Source: a virus. From it: a stretch of DNA of 24,740 nucleotides. The position numbers and the translations under genes are program-made. The notes beneath the pieces are model-generated. The model made no database searches, was not told the DNA's origin, and worked only from the letters and a program-made list of their open reading frames with translations. The stretch lies in the IMG/VR virus record IMGVR_UViG_3300049810_000060, positions 1 to 24,740 of that record; one strand, given 5' to 3'. Shown piece by piece: positions 15,871 through 23,877 of this stretch (positions are counted from its first letter, which is position 1; each line of letters starts with the position of its first letter).

Positions 15871-16581
15871 CTACTGTATCAACTTACCAAATCTATCTGT
15901 TCTGAACACTAAACCCATGTTTTCTTTATGCCATTCTTCGCCATTCTCTTCAATAAGAGTTTCTCCATCGGGATGTTGAATCTCTATATTAAACGATATA
16001 CTATATCTATCTTTATCTGTCGTGTTTGGTTCAACCATATGCATGGTGCCACTAGGAAATAAAAGTATGTCTCCAGTTTTTGGTTGCCAACCCCAAGATT
16101 CTTCCATTCTAGGTGAAGATAGAGCCATTCCAACATAGTGTTTAGTTGTTTCTATAAACTTAATATCTCCCTCGTCTCCGTCTGCCCTAATATAACATGC
16201 ACCAGAATAAGTACAACCATTATGTAAATGTGGTGCATTATATCCACCTGGATAGTTTATGTTTCCCCATGAGTTATGCATAACACATTGAGCAGTTCCT
16301 TTTTCAAATCCACAATAACCCATAATCTCTTCCGTCACTGTTCTTTTAATTTGTCTCATCAACTTATTGAATATGGGATTGTTATCGATACCATCGTTTG
16401 ATTGCCAACCGAGACCTTTATTAGACCTTCTTCTACCTTCACGGTCTCTAGTTCTCATAGCGTCCATTTCATCCTTCAACATTTGAAAATACTCTGGCGT
16501 CAATCCTTCCACTTTGTCTTCTGGATTATATAACCATTCTCTAATACAAATTACTGCTGGACTAAATAATTTAATCGCCAT
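15871..16581 (-). CDS. 2OG-Fe(II) oxygenase, TIGR02466/2OG-FeII_Oxy_5-like
   Basis: A 236-aa protein with the features of the putative 2OG-Fe(II) oxygenase family TIGR02466. In NINYPGGYNAPHLHNGCTYSGACYI, the His-x-His pair H118/H120 and SG-x-x-YI match that family's HxH...SGxYY. Then come GDILLFPSGTMHMVEP with the distal His (H181) and DRYSISFNIE with a likely 2-oxoglutarate Arg (R192). The N-terminal 100 residues are helical. This family is frequent in cyanophages and pelagiphages; the substrate is unknown. It overlaps the next upstream gene by 11 bases, so it belongs to a coupled cluster with the DUF6065-like and the fourth oxygenase genes. Confidence 0.85.
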   Translation of the reverse strand: MAIKLFSPAVICIREWLYNPEDKVEGLTPEYFQMLKDEMDAMRTRDREGRRRSNKGLGWQSNDGIDNNPIFNKLMRQIKRTVTEEIMGYCGFEKGTAQCVMHNSWGNINYPGGYNAPHLHNGCTYSGACYIRADGDEGDIKFIETTKHYVGMALSSPRMEESWGWQPKTGDILLFPSGTMHMVEPNTTDKDRYSISFNIEIQHPDGETLIEENGEEWHKENMGLVFRTDRFGKLIQ

Positions 16582-17407
16582 CTATTTCTCCTTTATGAAA
16601 TGGACACTCTGGTGGAGGTTCCATTTCTTTGAAATTCTTACCTTTTTGTTTCCAATGTCCTTCACTTCTATATGCACCCATATTGTTGGGTTTCTCTTTT
16701 AATAGTTTATCGTACTTCTCTCTGTTTACTTGGTCCATGCTAGGAAGTTCTTGTACTCTTTCTTCGGTTCTATCTTTGTGCCATCCAGCAGTGTCTTTTA
16801 ACTGATAAGTCGATACCCATTCTTCTCTTTTAAAAGGTATAACTTGAACTAGGGGAGTTCCTTTTGGTATAACAAACGAATGACTAACTTTAGGATAGAA
16901 AATAATTTGTGAATTGTCTTGATTGATATTAAAGTCATCTGTATCTATAACACCTTGCCATGTTGCAAAATGATTGTTTTGAAATAAAAAGGGGTCTAAA
17001 TAGAAACAAGAATAACCTTTTGGCGTTATTATATTCCAAGCATTTCTCATTTTAAATGCATCTTTAATTGGACCTTCTTCCCCCAAATAACTGAATGAGT
17101 GTGCAAACTGAGCTGCAGGATGAGAAGGAGATGCTTGAGATTGTGAAACCTCTTTGCCAAATTCTTGAGTATATGTTTTGCCGTTATCAAAAACAACTTC
17201 CATATCTCTATTTGCAAGAATATACCAACCAGATTTTAACCAATCATCCATTGCCGGACAAGCACGAATAGTCTGTATTCTTTGTCCTCTATCGTGTTGA
17301 AAGACTTTCATCTTTTTCCACCAATCAGGACTTAACGATTTAGCAAGAACTGGTTTCCAGTCTCTAAGACTCTCTTCGTTAAATGTAGTGAAATCTATCG
17401 TTGGCAT
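16571..17407 (-). CDS. DUF6065-like protein
   Basis: A 278-aa protein that I connect, tentatively, to the DUF6065 family of bacterial and phage proteins of unknown function. Seen: a beta-rich middle (about residues 45-210) with GWYILANRDMEVVFDNG, then WNIITPKGYSCFYLDPFLFQ, then ATWQGVIDTDDF and FYPKVSHSFVIPKGTPLVQVIPFKREEW. This suggests a double-stranded beta-helix (cupin-like) layout. There is no clear HxD triad, so I do not call it an oxygenase. The C-terminus is charged and ends with a CPFHKGE motif that could bind a metal. It overlaps both neighbours (11 and 29 bases), both of them 2OG oxygenases, so a common pathway is likely. Confidence 0.55.
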   Translation of the reverse strand: MPTIDFTTFNEESLRDWKPVLAKSLSPDWWKKMKVFQHDRGQRIQTIRACPAMDDWLKSGWYILANRDMEVVFDNGKTYTQEFGKEVSQSQASPSHPAAQFAHSFSYLGEEGPIKDAFKMRNAWNIITPKGYSCFYLDPFLFQNNHFATWQGVIDTDDFNINQDNSQIIFYPKVSHSFVIPKGTPLVQVIPFKREEWVSTYQLKDTAGWHKDRTEERVQELPSMDQVNREKYDKLLKEKPNNMGAYRSEGHWKQKGKNFKEMEPPPECPFHKGEIDGD

Positions 17408-18113
17408 TATATAATTCTTCCTTATCTACTAGTTCTATCTCGTCACCCCTAAGTACGATAGAACATCTATCTGCATATCGAGCTCGTTCTGTTGGTGCAT
17501 CTGCACCATGTGGTATTCTTCCATCAAACATTAACAATCTGTTTGGTTTAAACTCTATACTTCCTATAGAATGTTTTTCTATGTGTTCTTCTCTTCCATC
17601 TAAACCGGCTTGATAAACACCTTTATCATAAAATCTTAAATCTCCACCCCATGCAGGATTCCAGAATTTATTGTAGTAATATAGAAATGATAGGTTCCAT
17701 TCATCTTGTTCATCACAATCACAATGAGTTGTACCATGTTGACCATGAGTTTGAGAATTGGTTCCCATATACTGAAATCTTTTCCATTTAAAACCAAAGT
17801 CTGTACATATTCTTCTGTTCAACCATCTAGCGTGTTCTACACTTTCGGTTGTTTCTCCATATTCCATTTCTGGATTACCATAATCATCTGTTTTAAAGAA
17901 TGATGCACCCCAAAGTTGATGATGAGGTAAACCTGTGGGATGTTGTGCGTTTACTTGATTTTGTTTAGCCCACCTAGGACCTTCAGAAGTTTTACGATGA
18001 ATCCATCGATGTATAGAAGTCTCTAAGTAATCATCGATTACATAGACTTTATTTCCTAAAGGAAAGTCTTTAATAGTAAAAGGTTTATCTACCTTGACTA
18101 TTTCTAGGGACAT
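17379..18113 (-). CDS. 2OG-Fe(II) oxygenase, prolyl-hydroxylase-like
   Basis: A 244-aa protein with the 2OG-Fe(II) dioxygenase core. GTTHCDCDEQDEWNLSFLYYYN carries H130 and D132 of the triad, and GGDLRFYD is the usual turn between strands. The segment IEFKPNRLLMFDGRIPHGADAP carries the distal His H202, and R216 in ADRCSIVLRG is the likely 2-oxoglutarate Arg. This WGGxLxFYD...PxxNRLLxFDGxxPH pattern is common to viral and bacterial prolyl-4-hydroxylase-like proteins. The last 29 bases overlap the DUF6065-like gene and its start is 3 bases after the stop of the 183-aa gene, so it is translated from one polycistronic message. The substrate is unknown; see the finding on repeat-protein hydroxylation. 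Confidence 0.88.
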   Translation of the reverse strand: MSLEIVKVDKPFTIKDFPLGNKVYVIDDYLETSIHRWIHRKTSEGPRWAKQNQVNAQHPTGLPHHQLWGASFFKTDDYGNPEMEYGETTESVEHARWLNRRICTDFGFKWKRFQYMGTNSQTHGQHGTTHCDCDEQDEWNLSFLYYYNKFWNPAWGGDLRFYDKGVYQAGLDGREEHIEKHSIGSIEFKPNRLLMFDGRIPHGADAPTERARYADRCSIVLRGDEIELVDKEELYNANDRFHYI

Positions 18114-18116
18114 AAA

Positions 18117-18668
18117 CTACTCTATTAATGCTTTTTGTGGAGGTGGGAATCTATTAATATATTCTTCTACATCTGGAAGTAAATCTTCTCTAGTTGATTT
18201 TACATCATTCATAACATTTACATAGATGTTCCACAGTACATCATAGTATTCCAATACTCTTCTTGCATCTGACCTTAAAGGATGATTTGAACCATCTCTA
18301 CCTGCAGCCATAACATCTACCAGACTTTCAAATCCATAAGATTGAATTTGTTGGTCTAAGTAATTTCTACCAACATCATTAATTTGTTGACTGTATTGAT
18401 TGGATAATGTCACATCGGAAGGTGGAACAGAATTTTCAATGTAGTTTTCGATTGCATCTAACTCAACATCTGTTAATGAAATTTTTTCTTGTTCATCAAA
18501 CTGAACATTGTCTTTCCATTCCATAATCTTGACTTCGATGTCATCATAGATAAGAACATCATACTCAAACCCCAAATTAGGTTTATCGACATTATCATGT
18601 CTCCATTCTAGGCCATTTGGTTTTCTAATAGTGAGATGACCATTCTCACAATAAATTAACATATTCAT
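18117..18668 (-). CDS. Hypothetical protein, possible tail-fibre-accessory domain
   Basis: A 183-aa protein without a family I can name with confidence. Residues 1-60 are beta-rich with a LTIRKPNGLEWRHDNV and VLIYDDIEVKIMEW pattern. From about residue 95 it is helical: YLDQQIQSYGFESLVDVMAAGRDGSNHPLRSDARRVLEYYDVLWNIYVNVMNDV. The latter recalls the C-terminal region of many phage tail and fibre-accessory proteins, where a 'YxFxSxxxAxxYaxxxnpxxxxdAxxlxxWRDxvW' style sequence occurs (DUF4376-like). This would fit its place between the fibre-like repeat genes and the modification genes. Closely spaced with both neighbours (14 and 3 bases). Confidence 0.6.
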   Translation of the reverse strand: MNMLIYCENGHLTIRKPNGLEWRHDNVDKPNLGFEYDVLIYDDIEVKIMEWKDNVQFDEQEKISLTDVELDAIENYIENSVPPSDVTLSNQYSQQINDVGRNYLDQQIQSYGFESLVDVMAAGRDGSNHPLRSDARRVLEYYDVLWNIYVNVMNDVKSTREDLLPDVEEYINRFPPPQKALIE

Positions 18669-18682
18669 AACAACTCCATAAT

Positions 18683-20230
18683 TTAGTTTTGATGTTTGTT
18701 TTTAAATCTTTCATACATATTTAGGTGTTCTATTTCAGAAGTATCCATACCTTCAATCCAAGGACCGCCTCTAGTATAATGTATAGCACAAGCACGCCAC
18801 TTTTCTTCTTGTGTATCATGCCCCTCAGTTATAACATACCATTCTGGTATTTCTGATATCTTATCTGTCCATTCAAATTGATGTAGATATTTACCACTTT
18901 CAGTATTGATAACTTCTGGTGTAAGTTTTTTACAGTCTTCATGACCATTATTAAATATCATTAATGATGACCAAAGTTTTTTAGGATAAGATACATTCTT
19001 TTCACCGTTAAATTTTGTTTCAGCATAAGTATCAAAATCATACTGAACACATGCAACTGCATCATCTAAATCTAAGTAGTAGAACATTGGTAAGATACTT
19101 TCATTGAATAGTATATCATCATCAATAAAAATACTAAATCCTTCATAGTTTTCTAAGTAAGGAATTAAGAATCTACTATATGTGAACTCTGTTGATTGAG
19201 CTGCATACTCTCTATTATACTCTGGAATCTTTGATATGTCAAGAAACTTTATCTCAGGAGTCCAATCTCCTAATATATCATGTACATCACCACGACCTGC
19301 TCCAAATAATATACTACTCTTAAGACATTTAGCACTTAGTTCTGCAATGTCTTTGTGTCTACTATCATATCCGACATAGATTGTCAAGGGTTTGCCAGCA
19401 GAAAGTTTATTTACTTTTTTATTGAAGTCTGTCACATCTCCTCTGAAGTTCATCTTCAATAAGTCACTATGTATTTCTAAATATCCACGAGTGAATGAAA
19501 ACGACATTGAGTAGTGGGCTGCATTTCTTTCTACAAGTTGCGACTTCATTTCCTCAATCATTTCATCTATGGGTGTTTCTGGAAGAGGTATAGCATCGTG
19601 GTCATCCCATATCCATAAATCTAAGTCTGGGTCATCCATAGTTTCGAAAACACCTGAACGAACAGAACCTGGATGTATAGATAATTGATACATTCGTTCA
19701 TCTCTGGAGTTCATACCTGCTGTAGCTACAGTACCTTGAATTGCATTCCATAGACCTTCTTTTCTGATACTATCGACTAACCAATGTGCCTTTGCACCAT
19801 GATAATATACAGCATTAAGACTACCATCTTGTTGTTCGCTTAACTTAGTACCTGTAAATTCTTCTATCTTTTGATATTCATCATTTGAATTTTTAAAATC
19901 CATACCTGCAATTCCTGGTTTTGGATTTTCGGGTGGTGCAGTGTATCCTTTAGAAAGAAAGTAATGATATGCCCATGAATGAGATTGTAGTTTGTTCCAA
20001 CCAAGAAACTTTTGTTCCTTGATTAACTTAGTCATATCACCCCATTTGACCTGTTTTAATTTTCCTGTTTTGTTCGCTGTCACCCATTTTAAAGATTTAT
20101 ATGCTTCTGTTTCTTTATAATCTTTTGATACATCAAAAGAACCCAACTGAACATGTGTGTTCTTATCTGTTGGATCCCAATCTTTGAGAAGTTCCTTTGT
20201 GTGCTCGAGTGAGTCTGATTTTACGCTCAT
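18683..20230 (-). CDS. Glycosyltransferase (GT8-like) with N-terminal ParB-like domain
   Basis: A 515-aa two-part protein. The C-terminal part (about 280-500) is a GT-A glycosyltransferase of the GT8 kind. PLTIYVGYDSRHKDIAELSAKCL is the N-terminal nucleotide-sugar-binding strand. SRFLIPYL precedes FIDDDILF, the DxD metal/sugar-nucleotide motif at D370-D372. IHYTRGGPW (H484) is the terminal His-containing motif HxxxGGPW. The N-terminal part (about 1-260) is separate: HGAKAHWLVDSIRKEGLWNAIQGTVATAG...YQLSIHPGSVR carries a ParB/sulfiredoxin-like pattern with HPGxxR (186-191), usually a nucleotide-binding or NTPase motif. Sugar and acceptor are unknown. Directly after the repeat-protein genes, it might glycosylate them or the host envelope. 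Confidence 0.8.
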   Translation of the reverse strand: MSVKSDSLEHTKELLKDWDPTDKNTHVQLGSFDVSKDYKETEAYKSLKWVTANKTGKLKQVKWGDMTKLIKEQKFLGWNKLQSHSWAYHYFLSKGYTAPPENPKPGIAGMDFKNSNDEYQKIEEFTGTKLSEQQDGSLNAVYYHGAKAHWLVDSIRKEGLWNAIQGTVATAGMNSRDERMYQLSIHPGSVRSGVFETMDDPDLDLWIWDDHDAIPLPETPIDEMIEEMKSQLVERNAAHYSMSFSFTRGYLEIHSDLLKMNFRGDVTDFNKKVNKLSAGKPLTIYVGYDSRHKDIAELSAKCLKSSILFGAGRGDVHDILGDWTPEIKFLDISKIPEYNREYAAQSTEFTYSRFLIPYLENYEGFSIFIDDDILFNESILPMFYYLDLDDAVACVQYDFDTYAETKFNGEKNVSYPKKLWSSLMIFNNGHEDCKKLTPEVINTESGKYLHQFEWTDKISEIPEWYVITEGHDTQEEKWRACAIHYTRGGPWIEGMDTSEIEHLNMYERFKNKHQN

Positions 20231-20267: not shown

Positions 20268-21734
20268 TTAGGAATTAACAGGTGTTCCTGGCCATGTTTG
20301 TGACAATGAACCATCCCAACGGATAACAGGTGTTTGACCTTGTCTAGCATATGTACTAGGTGACCTATGTTGATAAGTCGTTGGTGTCTGACCTTGTCTA
20401 GCATATGTAGAAGGACTTCTATGTTGATAAGTCGTTGGTGTTTGACCTTGTCTAGCATATGTAGAAGGACTCTGATGTTGATATGTAAGAGGTGTCTGAC
20501 TATTTGCAGGATTTCTGTAAGTAAACGGACTTCTATGGTCATATGTTAAAGGAGACCTGTGGTCATATGTCAACGGACTTCTATGGTCATATGTAAATGG
20601 AGTCTGATTATTTCTTATAAACGGATTCTGAGCATTTACAGGATTCTGATAGTTCGCTGTTGTTTGTCTGTTTCTAATATTAGGTTCTTGTTGAGCTCTA
20701 ATATTAGGTTCTTGTTGTGACCTTATGTTTGGTTCTTGAGCATTTCTAATAAACGGATTTTGTGCATTAGCAATATACGGAGATTGTGCATTTCTAATAT
20801 TAGGTTCTTGCGTTACCGTTTGACCTGAACGAATATTAGGTTCTTGTTTTGCCCTAATATTAGGTTGTTGAGCATTACTAGGTGATTGAGCATCTCTAAT
20901 ATTAGGTTCTTGTTGATTCTTAATAGTAGGTTGTTGAGCACTCTGCTGTTTGTTTCTAATATTAGGTTCTTGTTGTGACCTTATGTTTGGTTCTTGTGCT
21001 GACTGTTGCGCTGAACGAATATTAGGTTCTTGTTGTGACCTTATGTTTGGTTCTTGTGCATTTGAAGTGGTTTGTGCGTTTGCAATATAAGGTGTTTGTC
21101 TGTTTCTAATATTAGGTTCTTGTGCATTTGCAGTGTTTTGTCTGTTTGCAATATAAGGTGTTTGTGCATTTCTGATATTAGGTTCTTGAGCTGCACTAGC
21201 CCCTTGTGCATTAGCAATGTAAGGAGTCTGAAAGTTTCTGATATTTGGTTCTTGAGCAGACTGTTGAGAATCTCTTATATTAGGTTCTTGTTTGTTCTTA
21301 ATTGTAGGTTGCTGAGCATTACTAGGTGACTGAGCATCTCTAATATTAGGTTCTTGTTGGTTTCTAATATTAGGTTGTTGTATGCTTCTAATATTGGGTT
21401 GCTGATTGTTCCTTATATTAGGTTCTTGATTATTCGCAATGTATGGACTCTGGAAAGTATAAGGTTGTTGACCAGTATAAGGAGTCTGACCATTCTTAAT
21501 AGTAGGTTGTTGATTATTTCTAATATTAGGTTGTTGATTATTCGCAATATAAGGACTCTGGAAAGTATAAGGAGTCTGACCAGTATAAGGAGTCTGACCA
21601 GATGCAATATATGGCGACTGATATGTAAATGGTTGTTGACCAGTATAAGGTTGCTGGCCATTAGCAATAGACGGAGTTTGCACATTAGAAGTGCTTGGCG
21701 ATTGAGCGATGCCAATTAGAGGTTGCTGTGGCAT
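20268..21734 (-). CDS. Octapeptide-repeat structural protein (fibre-like)
   Basis: A 488-aa protein made almost wholly of about 8-residue repeats with one Pro each: Q-(E/Q)-P-N-I-R-N-x (EPNIR about sixteen times), Q-(S/T)-P-Y-I-A-N-x, and near the C-terminus H-R-S-P-x-T-Y-x. The N-terminal third favours QQPYTGQ and QSPYIAN units, the middle AQEPNIRN, and the last third HRSPLTYD plus three tandem 18-residue units TPTTYQHRSPSTYARQGQ. The end, from PVIRWDGSLSQTW, is non-repetitive. No globular domain, signal peptide or membrane segment is visible. It shares units with the adjacent 700-aa protein, so the two are related by duplication. I recall similar repeats in marine phage structural proteins, of unknown function. 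A fibre or extended tether is the likeliest role. The start has GGGAG 9 nt upstream. Confidence 0.75.
   Translation of the reverse strand: MPQQPLIGIAQSPSTSNVQTPSIANGQQPYTGQQPFTYQSPYIASGQTPYTGQTPYTFQSPYIANNQQPNIRNNQQPTIKNGQTPYTGQQPYTFQSPYIANNQEPNIRNNQQPNIRSIQQPNIRNQQEPNIRDAQSPSNAQQPTIKNKQEPNIRDSQQSAQEPNIRNFQTPYIANAQGASAAQEPNIRNAQTPYIANRQNTANAQEPNIRNRQTPYIANAQTTSNAQEPNIRSQQEPNIRSAQQSAQEPNIRSQQEPNIRNKQQSAQQPTIKNQQEPNIRDAQSPSNAQQPNIRAKQEPNIRSGQTVTQEPNIRNAQSPYIANAQNPFIRNAQEPNIRSQQEPNIRAQQEPNIRNRQTTANYQNPVNAQNPFIRNNQTPFTYDHRSPLTYDHRSPLTYDHRSPFTYRNPANSQTPLTYQHQSPSTYARQGQTPTTYQHRSPSTYARQGQTPTTYQHRSPSTYARQGQTPVIRWDGSLSQTWPGTPVNS
20330..20491 (-). repeat. Three tandem 54-bp repeats
   Basis: Three contiguous 54-bp copies (starting at 20330, 20384 and 20438) differ at few positions, and encode three 18-residue units of the 488-aa protein. 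The near identity at DNA level shows recent tandem expansion. Confidence 0.9.
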
Positions 21735-21774: not shown

Positions 21775-23877
21775 TTATTTTTGCCCAATTGGTAGACCTT
21801 GGTTGTTAAAGTTATGTGCTAACATTCCATTAACAAAGAAGTTCGAGTTATCTTCAATATCAGTTAAGTTATAAACTTCCATTTCTGAATGTTCTTCTAC
21901 TGATACTATCTCTAGTCCCATTTCATCTTGTCTATCAAACATTATTCCATCTAACATACTGAATACACTATCTCCAACTGTAAGTTCATGTGTTTCTATA
22001 TCTTCCATCCAACTATGTTCTTTGACTGATTTCTCAACATCAAATGCACCCCATTCGCCATTTGGTAGCATCAATGGGTGAGTATCAGTCATCTGTAGAA
22101 TTCTACCATCTGAGAATGTTATATCCCATATAGAACTGATTGGTTGAGGATTAATTTGTTGTATTCTCTTAGGTTCAAGTAATTTAGTACTTTCGTTCCA
22201 AGACATGACCCATTGACCAATAACACATGACTCGATAGGTGCATGTGAACCATCGCCTAACCATATCATTGAACCTGGAGCGAAGCAACCTCCGCCTCCT
22301 CCTCCACCACCAAAGGTAAACGGATTTCTGTATCCATAAGATGCAGGAGACTGATTGTTTGCAATCGAAGGCGTTCTATGTTGATAAGTGAAAGGATTTC
22401 TTCCACTAAATGGGTTTCTAGCAGAGTTTGGTTGTCTTGCCTGATAAGTGAACGGTTGTCTTGCACTAAATGGTTGTCTAGCACTATTCGGTTGTCTTGC
22501 CTGATATGTACTAGGTGACCTGTGATTATATGAACTAGGCGACCTATGGTCGTATGTAAATGGTTGTCTTGCACTAAATGGGTTTCTAGCAGCGTTAGGT
22601 TGTCTTGCCTGATATGTACTAGGTGACCTATGTTGATATGTACTAGGCGACCTATGGTCATATGTATATGGTGACCTGTGATTATATGTAGTAGGTGACC
22701 TATGGTTGTAAGTAAACGGATTACGATATGTAAACGGTGACCTATGGTCATATGTAAATGGCGACCTATGTTGATAAGTAAACGGACTTCTATAAGGTGA
22801 CCTATGGTCATATGTACCAGGTTGTCTATTGTTGTAAGTACTAGGATTCTGGTAAATACTTGGCGACTGATGCTGATAACTACTAGGTTGTCTGTTCTGA
22901 TAGGTACTCGGATTCTGGTAAATACTTGGCGACTGATGCTGATAAGTACTAGGTTGTCTGTTCTGATAGGTACTTGGATTCTGATAGATACTCGGTGACT
23001 GATGTTGATAAGTCAACGGACTTCTATGCTGATAAGTGAACGGACTTCTATAAGGCGACCTATGGTCATATGTCAACGGACTTCTATGGTCATATGTAAA
23101 CGGACTTCTATAAGGTGACCTATGGTCATATGTTAAAGGAGACCTGTGATTATAAGTAAACGGATTACGATATGTAAACGGTGACCTATGGTCATATGTA
23201 AATGGTGACCTATGTTGATAGATGAACGGACTTCTATAAGGCGACCTATGGTCATATGTATTAGGTTGTCTATTACTATATGTAGAAGGTGACCTATGGT
23301 CATATGTAAATGGTGACCTATGTTGATATGTCAACGGACTTCTATGTTGATATGTCAACGGACTTCTATGATTATATGTAGAAGGATCCTGATATGTTCT
23401 AGGGTCTCTATATGTAGAAGGTGACCTATGTTGATATGTGCCAGGTTGTCTAGCATTTCTAATATTAGGTTCTTGTTGTGACCTAATATTTGGTTCTTGT
23501 TGATTTCTAATATTAGGTTCTTGTGCATTTACTGGATTTTGATAAATCGCAGGTTGTCTTCTATCTCTAATATTAGGTTCTTGTGCATTAGCAATATAAG
23601 GATAAGGATTCTGTTTGTTTCTTATATTAGGTTCTTGTGCATTAGCAATATAAGGATAAGGATTCTGTCTGTTTCTTATATTGGGTTCTTGTGCGTTTGC
23701 GATATAAGGATAAGGTTGTTGAACACTCTGTTGTCCAGAAGCATTATTCCAACCGGTAGGCGTCTTTACATAAATCTGGTCTGCAGCTTTCCATGTGCCT
23801 GAGTCTGTTTTTACCCATGCACCTCGGGTTGCATTCCAACCGGTTGGTGTTTTTACCTTTTGTGAGCCTGTCGCCAT
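21775..23877 (-). CDS. Repeat fibre protein with C-terminal Hint (intein-like) domain
   Basis: A 700-aa protein. Residues 1-50 hold two copies of VKTPTGWN (8-15 and 37-44), a W/G motif common at the N-terminus of phage tail proteins. Residues about 52-520 are about 8-residue Pro-centred repeats: first NPYPYIANAQEPNIRN, then mostly (D/N/Q)HRSP(F/L/S)TY, with QARQPNSA units near the end. Residues 523-530 are eight Gly. Residues 531-689 are a Hint domain: C531-FAPGSMIWLGDG, block B TDTH (597-600), block F VYNLTDIEDNSNFFVNG, terminal H688-N689. It has no endonuclease insert. Eleven residues follow, starting with Phe690 rather than Cys/Ser/Thr, so canonical splicing is not expected. N- or C-terminal self-cleavage is possible. 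Tail-fibre or surface role inferred from position after a fibre gene. The ribosome-binding site is AAGGA. Confidence 0.85.
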   Translation of the reverse strand: MATGSQKVKTPTGWNATRGAWVKTDSGTWKAADQIYVKTPTGWNNASGQQSVQQPYPYIANAQEPNIRNRQNPYPYIANAQEPNIRNKQNPYPYIANAQEPNIRDRRQPAIYQNPVNAQEPNIRNQQEPNIRSQQEPNIRNARQPGTYQHRSPSTYRDPRTYQDPSTYNHRSPLTYQHRSPLTYQHRSPFTYDHRSPSTYSNRQPNTYDHRSPYRSPFIYQHRSPFTYDHRSPFTYRNPFTYNHRSPLTYDHRSPYRSPFTYDHRSPLTYDHRSPYRSPFTYQHRSPLTYQHQSPSIYQNPSTYQNRQPSTYQHQSPSIYQNPSTYQNRQPSSYQHQSPSIYQNPSTYNNRQPGTYDHRSPYRSPFTYQHRSPFTYDHRSPFTYRNPFTYNHRSPTTYNHRSPYTYDHRSPSTYQHRSPSTYQARQPNAARNPFSARQPFTYDHRSPSSYNHRSPSTYQARQPNSARQPFSARQPFTYQARQPNSARNPFSGRNPFTYQHRTPSIANNQSPASYGYRNPFTFGGGGGGGGCFAPGSMIWLGDGSHAPIESCVIGQWVMSWNESTKLLEPKRIQQINPQPISSIWDITFSDGRILQMTDTHPLMLPNGEWGAFDVEKSVKEHSWMEDIETHELTVGDSVFSMLDGIMFDRQDEMGLEIVSVEEHSEMEVYNLTDIEDNSNFFVNGMLAHNFNNQGLPIGQK
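21811..22287 (-). other. Hint autoprocessing domain (159 residues)
   Basis: This stretch encodes residues 531-689 of the 700-aa protein. Catalytic elements are all present: first-residue Cys, block-B TxxH (T597, H600), block-F strand ending NFFVNGMLAHN, and the final His-Asn. Size fits a mini-intein or bacterial intein-like domain. The residue after Asn is Phe. Confidence 0.88.
22710..22816 (-). repeat. 107-bp duplicated block, copy A
   Basis: Nearly identical to 23154-23260 (444 bases away). Both encode PYRSPF-x-YQHRSPFTYDHRSPFTYRNPFTY. A large segmental duplication inside the repeat gene. Confidence 0.85.
22838..23010 (-). repeat. 66-bp tandem repeats
   Basis: A 66-bp period (for example the matches at 22861, 22927 and 22993) encodes three copies of a 22-residue unit containing QHQSPSIYQNPSTYQNRQPS. 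Copies differ by a few bases only, indicating recent expansion. Confidence 0.85.
23154..23260 (-). repeat. 107-bp duplicated block, copy B
   Basis: Partner of 22710-22816, in the same orientation and the same gene, with only scattered base differences. Confidence 0.85.

What the first reader, a model, noticed from the sequence alone, without database searches (positions are those of the whole stretch)
21811..22287. Hint domain with Phe at +1 at the end of a repeat fibre protein
Seen: C531 ... T597-D-T-H600 ... H688-N689, then Phe690 and only ten more residues. Established: class 1 inteins need Cys/Ser/Thr at +1 for splicing; Hedgehog and bacterial intein-like domains with other +1 residues cleave or transfer their N-terminal part instead. 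Inference: the 530-residue repeat fibre is released from, or covalently transferred to another molecule by, the Hint domain at its Gly8-Cys junction, and the 11-residue tail may be cut off after N689. A virion fibre that attaches itself covalently to a partner would be a new use of Hint chemistry in phage.
Basis: partly seen in the sequence, partly recalled or inferred. Interest (0 to 1): 0.88.

Follow-up and report, generated by a model that had tools for sequence, protein, structure and literature searches.

The report
Self-cutting insert at phage fibre tip
A marine virus of bacteria carries, near the end of a repeat-rich fibre-like protein, a domain of the kind that cuts itself out of proteins; relatives of the protein do without it and simply run on to a short end, so it looks like an optional intein-like insert rather than a device that the fibre needs.

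Summary
In detail: a Hint domain (C531...T597xxH600...H688N689) lies after eight glycines in a 700-aa fibre-like protein of a T4-like marine phage, followed by Phe690 and ten more residues. The catalytic residues are invariant in 24 aligned phage Hints down to 24% identity. By profile and predicted fold it is closest to Tetrahymena BIL2, and its residues fit type A bacterial intein-like (BIL) domains. In the same gene cassette, homologous fibres without the Hint end mostly in a glycine run plus a short tail, and the state changes at least five times on the cassette tree. A second, unrelated phage protein occurs with and without a Hint, its N-terminal parts being 96% identical. So the Hint is best read as an intein-like insert at a Gly-run/tail junction, dispensable for the host protein. 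Phe+1 excludes ordinary class 1 splicing; what remains is nucleophile-free BIL splicing, cleavage, or transfer. No reaction product was observed. Tail homology is good in the second family, weak in the fibre family (a cross control was also positive). New variant of a known kind.

The parts
21775..23877 (-). 700-aa fibre-like host protein (repeats such as QEPNIRN, SPFTYDHR) that carries the Hint domain
   Evidence: same slot in relatives. That it is a virion fibre is inferred from place and repeats
23698..23877 (-). conserved N-terminal 60 aa, 77-100% identical in the relatives that reach it
22288..22311 (-). Gly8 run just before Cys531; -1 is Gly in 31 of 31 cassette Hints
21811..22287 (-). 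Hint domain, residues 531-689 (159 aa, too short for a homing endonuclease part)
22285..22287 (-). Cys531 (intein position 1)
   Evidence: invariant
22078..22089 (-). block B T597-D-T-H600
   Evidence: T and H invariant
21811..21816 (-). His688-Asn689, C-terminal catalytic pair
   Evidence: invariant
21778..21810 (-). 11-residue tail FNNQGLPIGQK (Phe690 = +1), read here as the C-terminal remnant of the fibre tip
20268..21734 (-). second repeat protein (488 aa), no Hint; found after the fibre in 31 of 31 Hint-bearing and 15 of 17 clean Hint-less loci
18683..20230 (-). 515-aa protein with GT8 glycosyltransferase domain (cassette member)
18117..18668 (-). 183-aa unknown protein, used as cassette marker
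15871..18113 (-). two 2OG-Fe(II) oxygenase-like genes (17379-18113, 15871-16581) and a 278-aa unknown between them (16571-17407)

Best explanation
The domain is a type A BIL-like Hint (mini-intein fold, Cys1, TxxH, His-Asn end, no +1 nucleophile) that sits as an intein-like insert between a glycine run and a short C-terminal tail at the tip of a phage fibre-like protein. Shown: the motifs and their conservation, the fold (as a prediction), the Hint-less relatives, and repeated change of state. Inferred: it is active; Cys531 takes over the Gly530 carbonyl as a thioester, Asn689 cyclises and frees the tail, and the freed amine of Phe690 attacks the Gly thioester, so that the tip is rejoined at least in part (nucleophile-free BIL splicing), with hydrolytic cleavage as a side or even main product. 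The tip made this way would look like that of Hint-less relatives.
For: Closest solved structures by sequence profile are BILs (BIL2 9e-18, CthBIL4 6.5e-16, then DnaB intein 2.3e-13); by fold BIL2 is first (Z 21.8, rmsd 1.9, 149 aligned; DnaB mini-intein 19.3; CthBIL4 17.5). C1, F2, I18, T67, H70, P71, W79, G105, H158, N159 invariant in 24 rows. -1 Gly 31/31 in cassette Hints found through another gene. Hint-less fibres in the same cassette, e.g. L248 FGGGGGFNSYMPLFDQR, L287 GGGGGGGGGFYPQDLK, L293 SGGGGFFEP; in 8 of the 16 that have a final GG run the next residue is Phe, as at +1 in 15 of 31 Hint-bearing ones. Five state changes on the cassette tree, all forced by starred branches, with sister pairs L225/L227 and L229/L231+L232. 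Second family: 7 Hint-bearing and 44 Hint-less of 51, N-terminal parts up to 178/186 identical, three state changes (two forced), tails alike (20.4 against 11.4 shuffled, 0 of 500), also with +1 removed (0 of 1000). Tail amino acids look constrained (pN/pS 0.37 against 0.44 in the N flank and 0.26 in the Hint).
Against: Characterised BILs mostly cleave, and a BIL with Tyr+1 did not splice until Tyr was changed to Cys (PMC4031507, passages; PMC7664689, passages). In the fibre family the tail likeness rests mainly on +1 Phe: in the window's own clade 74 of 1000 shuffles reach it with +1 held, over all tails 38 of 1000 with +1 removed, and fibre tails also match the unrelated family-2 ends (0 of 1000), so part is a generic layout; the other all-Hint clade has no signal alone (404 of 1000). 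In family 2, [KR]D near the end occurs in only 14 of 44 Hint-less ends and Lys+1 seems to come with the Hint. Of 41 cellular Hint loci read, 23 also end 1-15 residues after His-Asn, so a short tail does not by itself show an extein. Tail pS is near saturation and the 12 pairs are not independent. The trees are quick ones and L229, L247, L222 and L212 are long branches. No product was seen.
Confidence: 0.5

Rival explanations
1. Cleavage without rejoining: the thioester at Gly530-Cys531 is hydrolysed and the tail cut off, so the mature fibre ends in polyglycine and the Hint is shed (maturation or release device).
For: Characterised BILs give mainly cleaved products (passages). No +1 nucleophile; 17 of 21 non-redundant C-terminal phage Hints in the polyGly sample have a +1 other than Cys/Ser/Thr. 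Tails are short and vary more than the Hint.
Against: The tail keeps amino-acid constraint and, in family 2, likeness to Hint-less ends; most Hint-less relatives keep a tail after the Gly run.
Confidence: 0.3
2. Transfer: the Gly thioester is attacked by a lysine or other amine of a partner (second repeat protein, another fibre, or the host surface), giving a covalently attached fibre, as BIL2 is reported to do with a ubiquitin-like domain.
For: BIL2 is the closest solved structure and is reported to make isopeptide bonds to lysines of other proteins (passages). A possible partner, the second repeat protein, follows the fibre in 31 of 31 Hint-bearing loci.
Against: The same second protein was found beside 15 of 17 clean Hint-less fibres too, and Hint-less relatives persist, so transfer is not required. 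No partner-binding part is seen.
Confidence: 0.1
3. Inactive or purely structural Hint-fold cap kept at the fibre end.
For: No activity shown; 13 of 34 non-redundant polyGly-Cys-Phe ORFs lack a His-Asn end, nine of them, by eye, of one Hint-like class and some not Hint at all.
Against: C1, TxxH and HN are among the few invariant columns in 24 rows down to 24% identity; low pN/pS in the Hint (0.26).
Confidence: 0.1

Closest known systems
Type A bacterial intein-like (BIL) domains, e.g. Clostridium thermocellum BIL4 (2LWY)
   Same: Hint fold, Cys1, TxxH, His-Asn end, no Cys/Ser/Thr at +1; second-best profile match (6.5e-16), Z 17.5; in variable proteins
   Different: Here in phage virion-type proteins, at a Gly-run/tail junction, with Hint-less alleles of the same protein; activity unknown
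Tetrahymena BUBL BIL2 (6TMM, 6Y75)
   Same: Best profile and fold match; Met follows the (mutated) His-Asn in the crystallised chain, and Met is +1 in L020; its N-terminal partner ends in RGG (PMC9200820, passage)
   Different: BIL2 lies between ubiquitin-like domains and is reported to conjugate one of them to lysines; here the N part is a repeat fibre and the C part is 11 residues
Class 1 mini-inteins (Ssp and Npu DnaB)
   Same: Fold, Cys1, block B, His-Asn; sporadic presence with Hint-less alleles
   Different: Phe at +1 instead of Cys/Ser/Thr; a fast-evolving tip instead of a conserved enzyme site
Hedgehog autoprocessing domain (1AT0)
   Same: Hint fold (Z 15.8), N-S acyl shift, no C-terminal nucleophile
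   Different: Hedgehog lacks the His-Asn step (recalled) and has a downstream sterol-recognition part (PMC7765530, passage); here His-Asn is invariant and only 11 residues follow
Phage NCTB 'large intein domain protein' (LT598654); BFVD 'Hint domain containing protein' models of uncultured Caudovirales
   Same: NCTB: SGGGGGG-Cys Hint near the C-terminus, HN plus APVDQKH. BFVD: matched by fold only, sequences not read
   Different: Other host proteins; no report on processing found

Membership tests
Type A BIL domain | Hint fold with nearest kin among BILs | tested here: met
   BIL2 first by profile and by VIA Z, CthBIL4 second by profile; but DnaB inteins are close behind, NpuDnaB is first in plain Foldseek, and CthBIL4 is only 12th by Z
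Type A BIL domain | Cys1, block B TxxH, C-terminal His-Asn | tested here: met
   invariant in 24 rows
Type A BIL domain | no nucleophile at +1 | tested here: met
   Phe690; 31 cassette Hints: F15 G10 Y2 M L K A
Type A BIL domain | found in variable, non-conserved proteins | tested here: met
   fast-evolving repeat fibre; feature from PMC7765530, passage
Type A BIL domain | autocleavage, low-level splicing | not testable with these tools
   needs expression
Class 1 intein | Cys/Ser/Thr at +1 | tested here: not met
   Phe690; 0 of 31 cassette Hints have C, S or T
Class 1 intein | Hint-less alleles of the host gene | tested here: met
Class 1 intein | sits at a conserved site of a conserved protein | tested here: not met
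   variable Gly-rich tip
Hedgehog (Hog) domain | adduct-recognition region after the Hint | tested here: not met
   only 11 residues after Asn689
Pretoxin-HINT of polymorphic toxins | a toxin domain follows the Hint | tested here: not met
   only 11 residues follow; by sequence 14 of 24 aligned Hints do match PF07591 at E 0.01
BUBL (ubiquitin-like plus BIL) | ubiquitin-like domains flank the Hint | tested here: not met
   Pfam lists only two Hint-type families for the protein at E up to 10

The most novel reading that the evidence does not exclude
Marine phages carry a widespread class of intein-like elements that live at glycine-run/tail junctions of virion proteins and splice themselves out without a +1 nucleophile: the invariant -1 Gly gives a reactive thioester that the freed amine of the tail attacks. 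This would be natural, selected protein ligation by a BIL, with Hint-less alleles showing what the product should look like. A bolder form is that the same thioester is used to bond fibre tips to lysines of partners or host.
Probability: 0.35. Interest if true: 0.78.

Novelty: new variant of a known kind. Interest (0 to 1): 0.6.

Why it matters
BILs are reported to ligate poorly in tests, and whether nucleophile-free splicing is ever the natural job of such a domain is, as far as the passages read here go, open. Phage proteins that occur with and without the domain (one family 96% identical in the N-terminal part) give a natural with/without comparison and a predicted product peptide that can be looked for directly. 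If the domain only cleaves, it is a maturation device at fibre tips; if it ligates or transfers, it is an ATP-free ligation tool that works with Gly at -1 and many residues at +1.

Tried and rejected
Rejected: (1) ordinary class 1 intein, because +1 is Cys/Ser/Thr in 0 of 31 cassette Hints; as contrast, of the seven distant loci (L044-L050) the six outside fibres have Cys (L045 and its near copy L046, L047, L049, L050) or Ser (L048) at +1 and C-exteins of roughly 80 residues or more. (2) A feature unique to this phage: refuted. (3) The second repeat protein as a Hint-specific partner: it is found with and without Hint (recognised by motif). (4) A Hint elsewhere in Hint-less loci: none at E 0.01 in six frames of 14 loci.

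Led nowhere: first scan of genome contigs (0 of 27 confirmed); tblastn of the fibre N-terminus against phages (no match; the low-complexity filter is on); PHROGs (one unnamed family at E 0.11 for the fibre); NCBIfam (weak intein-type matches only); literature on Hint in fibres and on AXH with Hint. The BIL primary papers were not held, so BIL biochemistry is cited from passages of reviews. The Hint tree groups 30 of 31 cassette Hints (support 93, not starred) with L229 apart, but many long branches meet, so I build nothing on it.

Counts and dropped rows: one search had 140 loci: 55 Hint, 8 Hint with 5' end open, 33 without, 44 with no fibre found; deduplicated to 52 (27, 4, 21). Dropped from tree and tests: L177 (frame-broken copy of the window's fibre), L246 (other C-terminal end), L294 (probably the second repeat protein). 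L227 has an in-frame stop before its end; it counts as Hint-less in the tree, its downstream end is used as read, and it is not among the 17 clean ones. Of family 2, 5 of 56 distinct loci run off the contig; an early notebook entry says 8 Hint-bearing there, the right count is 7. One search read 41 of the 80 cellular loci: 23 of 41 end 1-15 residues after His-Asn, +1 is Lys in 29 of 41 (17 of the 23) and Cys in 5. One search kept 56 of 80 loci (complete, at most 200 aa after Cys), 34 after dereplication. The reference list of the fibre tail test was 14 distinct ends; for family 2 one search used all 44 ends, a typed list of 18.

Full report
What is there. The window is one virus record of 24,740 bases, a fragment of a T4-like marine phage: the large terminase is 56% identical to that of Phage C48C1 (Kyanoviridae) and about 46% to those of Synechococcus phages. 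On the minus strand, 21775-23877 encodes a 700-aa protein of proline/tyrosine-rich repeats that ends in Gly8, a 159-aa Hint domain (C531 to N689), Phe690 and ten more residues.

It is a Hint domain. Pfam gives Intein_splicing at 6.8e-9 for the domain. An alignment-based AlphaFold2 model is confident (pLDDT 85, pTM 0.82; stretches under 50 only at residues 1-8 and 174-180 of 180), and the 50 PDB entries listed by the second-look aligner are Hint, intein or Hedgehog structures, Tetrahymena BIL2 first (Z 21.8, rmsd 1.9, 149 residues), Ssp DnaB mini-intein at 19.3, CthBIL4 at 17.5, Hedgehog at 15.8; plain Foldseek puts NpuDnaB first and BIL2 second. A profile of 24 phage Hints ranks BIL2 (9e-18) and CthBIL4 (6.5e-16) above the inteins. 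In that set, down to 24% identity, the invariant columns are C1, F2, I18, T67, H70, P71, W79, G105, H158 and N159; in 9 rows C1 and F2 were part of the search pattern. Block F position 4, Asp in most inteins (recalled), is Asn in the window family and His in some others.

It is one of many. Of 34 non-redundant complete ORFs with at most 200 aa after the Cys, 21 end in His-Asn plus 3-18 residues, with +1 V6 G4 K3 S3 I2 A T P; 13 lack His-Asn. A named public record with the same build is Phage NCTB, 'large intein domain protein'. So +1 residues other than Cys/Ser/Thr are the rule in such proteins.

The cassette. In relatives the order tail protein - Hint fibre - second repeat protein - GT8 protein - 183-aa unknown - 2OG oxygenase - 278-aa unknown - 2OG oxygenase - 86 aa - gp13 - gp14 holds as far as the contigs reach, down to Hint identities of 26-30% (31 loci); L052, L110 and L120 have about 1.3 kb extra between the 278-aa gene and the second oxygenase. 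A paper on pelagimyophages describes a host recognition cluster between VrlC and gp14 that holds tail fibres and glycosyltransferases, GT8 being the most represented family in those phages (PMC7029224, passages). This supports, but does not show, that the protein is a fibre.

Key result: Hint-less homologues. I searched with the 183-aa neighbour, independently of the Hint (each keeps the best 80). Of 52 deduplicated loci with a fibre, 31 carry the Hint (4 of them 5'-truncated) and 21 do not; of these 21, 17 have clean ends, 3 were dropped and one (L227) has an in-frame stop. Hint-less fibres end in an aromatic stretch, mostly a Gly run, and a short tail: FGGGGGFNSYMPLFDQR, GGGGGGGGGFYPQDLK, SGGGGFFEP and others; L236 and L227 have no final GG run. 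Hint-bearing fibres have the Hint between Gly-ending stretch and tail. On a quick tree of four cassette proteins (49 loci) the state changes five times, all forced by starred branches (SH-aLRT 95 or more); L225 (Hint, YRFPYFYTNFQGGGGG before Cys1) is sister to L227 (no Hint, YRFPYFYQNFQPTPNVSEF), and L229 (Hint) to L231 and L232 (ends). L229, L247, L222 and L212 are long branches, and the tree cannot tell gain from loss.

Second family. A 200-aa protein with a weak match to a baseplate hub N-domain (PF09931, below its cut-off) shows the same: 7 of 51 distinct complete loci carry the Hint, six after WGRSSSN plus a Gly-rich stretch and L352 after WGSSSTKGGSSGGGG, and 44 do not. State changes three times, two of them forced. 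The nearest pair is identical at 178 of 186 residues before the tip: GGGGGGG-[Hint]-KKDEGIGNKNEQQK against GGGGGGVRDDGKNVVVQEER. Tails match Hint-less ends better than any of 500 shuffles (20.4 against 11.4), also without +1 (0 of 1000), and do not clearly match the fibre family's ends (81 of 1000). Against: [KR]D near the end is in only 14 of 44 Hint-less ends, and +1 is Lys in 7 of 7 Hint-bearing ones but not in the nearest Hint-less ones.

How far the tail evidence goes in the fibre family. The first test was positive (8.1 against 5.4, 0 of 500; unrelated polyGly-Hint tails 212 of 500). But in the window's own clade 74 of 1000 shuffles reach the score with +1 held, and the other all-Hint clade has no signal (404 of 1000). 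Over all tails with +1 removed, 38 of 1000 reach it, and the cross control against family-2 ends is positive too (0 of 1000), so part of the signal is a general layout, glycine or asparagine early and Lys/Arg late. What remains is +1 Phe (15 of 31) against Phe after the last Gly run (8 of 16), the sister pairs, and amino-acid constraint on the tail (pN/pS 0.37 over 12 non-independent pairs). Of 41 cellular Hint loci read, 23 also end 1-15 residues after His-Asn, Lys first in 17 of these.

Mechanism. Phe690 cannot take the acyl group, so class 1 splicing is out. Reviews describe type A BILs as having His-Asn and no +1 nucleophile, mainly cleaving, with some ligation by the freed amine of the C-terminal part (PMC4031507, passages; PMC7664689, passages). 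BIL2 is reported to conjugate its N-terminal ubiquitin-like partner to lysines (PMC8616854, passages). The Hint-less alleles suggest that the host protein works without the Hint; that is against a required release or attachment device and for an intein-like insert. I rate self-excision with at least partial rejoining at 0.5, cleavage only at 0.3, transfer at 0.1, inactive at 0.1.

Novelty. In the held library I found no paper on Hint domains as inserts in phage fibre or hub tips (listings, and passages of ten papers over the session); that library lacks most subscription papers. Database names such as 'Hint domain containing protein' for uncultured phages exist. I call it a new variant of a known kind: a type A BIL living like an intein in virion-type proteins.

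Noticed in passing
15871-20230: Beside the proline-rich repeat proteins lie a GT8 glycosyltransferase and two 2OG-Fe(II) oxygenase-like proteins (with a 278-aa unknown between), conserved as a block with them; this could be a hydroxylation-plus-glycosylation system for the repeats, reminiscent (recalled) of collagen or extensin modification.
   Followed up: partly
18683-20230: The GT8 match covers only part of the 515-aa protein; the N-terminal half has no Pfam match and evolves faster than the C-terminal half (34-36% against 59-61% identity in the distant relatives).
   Followed up: no
Hint domains of L229, L225 and L057: Some phage Hint domains match the Pfam AXH (ataxin-1) model: 5 of 24 rows, best 2.3e-14 (row not identified), L229 3.7e-5, L225 0.0018, L057 0.0088; the Hint profile matches ataxin-1 structures at about 1e-6. 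A possible common origin of Hint and AXH.
   Followed up: partly
L060, L072, L078, L100 and others: A class of about 140-aa Hint-like C-terminal domains after polyGly with a VSGxHM block and no His-Asn end (many end in NILNA).
   Followed up: no
L070, L071, L076, L085: polyGly-Cys Hint domains 15-27 residues from the start of very long phage ORFs (J-like by recall), followed by over 500 residues; +1 is T, K, G, G.
   Followed up: no
L227 2989 to about 4950; L177 2779-4891 (same contig as L008): The Hint-less fibre gene of L227 has an in-frame stop inside the repeats, and L177 is a frame-broken copy of the window's fibre; sequencing error or variation in repeats was not distinguished.
   Followed up: no
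L052, L110, L120: About 1.3 kb of extra DNA between the 278-aa gene and the second 2OG oxygenase gene of the cassette, not examined.
   Followed up: no
L387-L466: Flavobacteria and other cells carry Hint domains near the C-terminus of large proteins with HN plus a short tail (23 of 41 loci read), Lys first in most: the same build in cells.
   Followed up: partly
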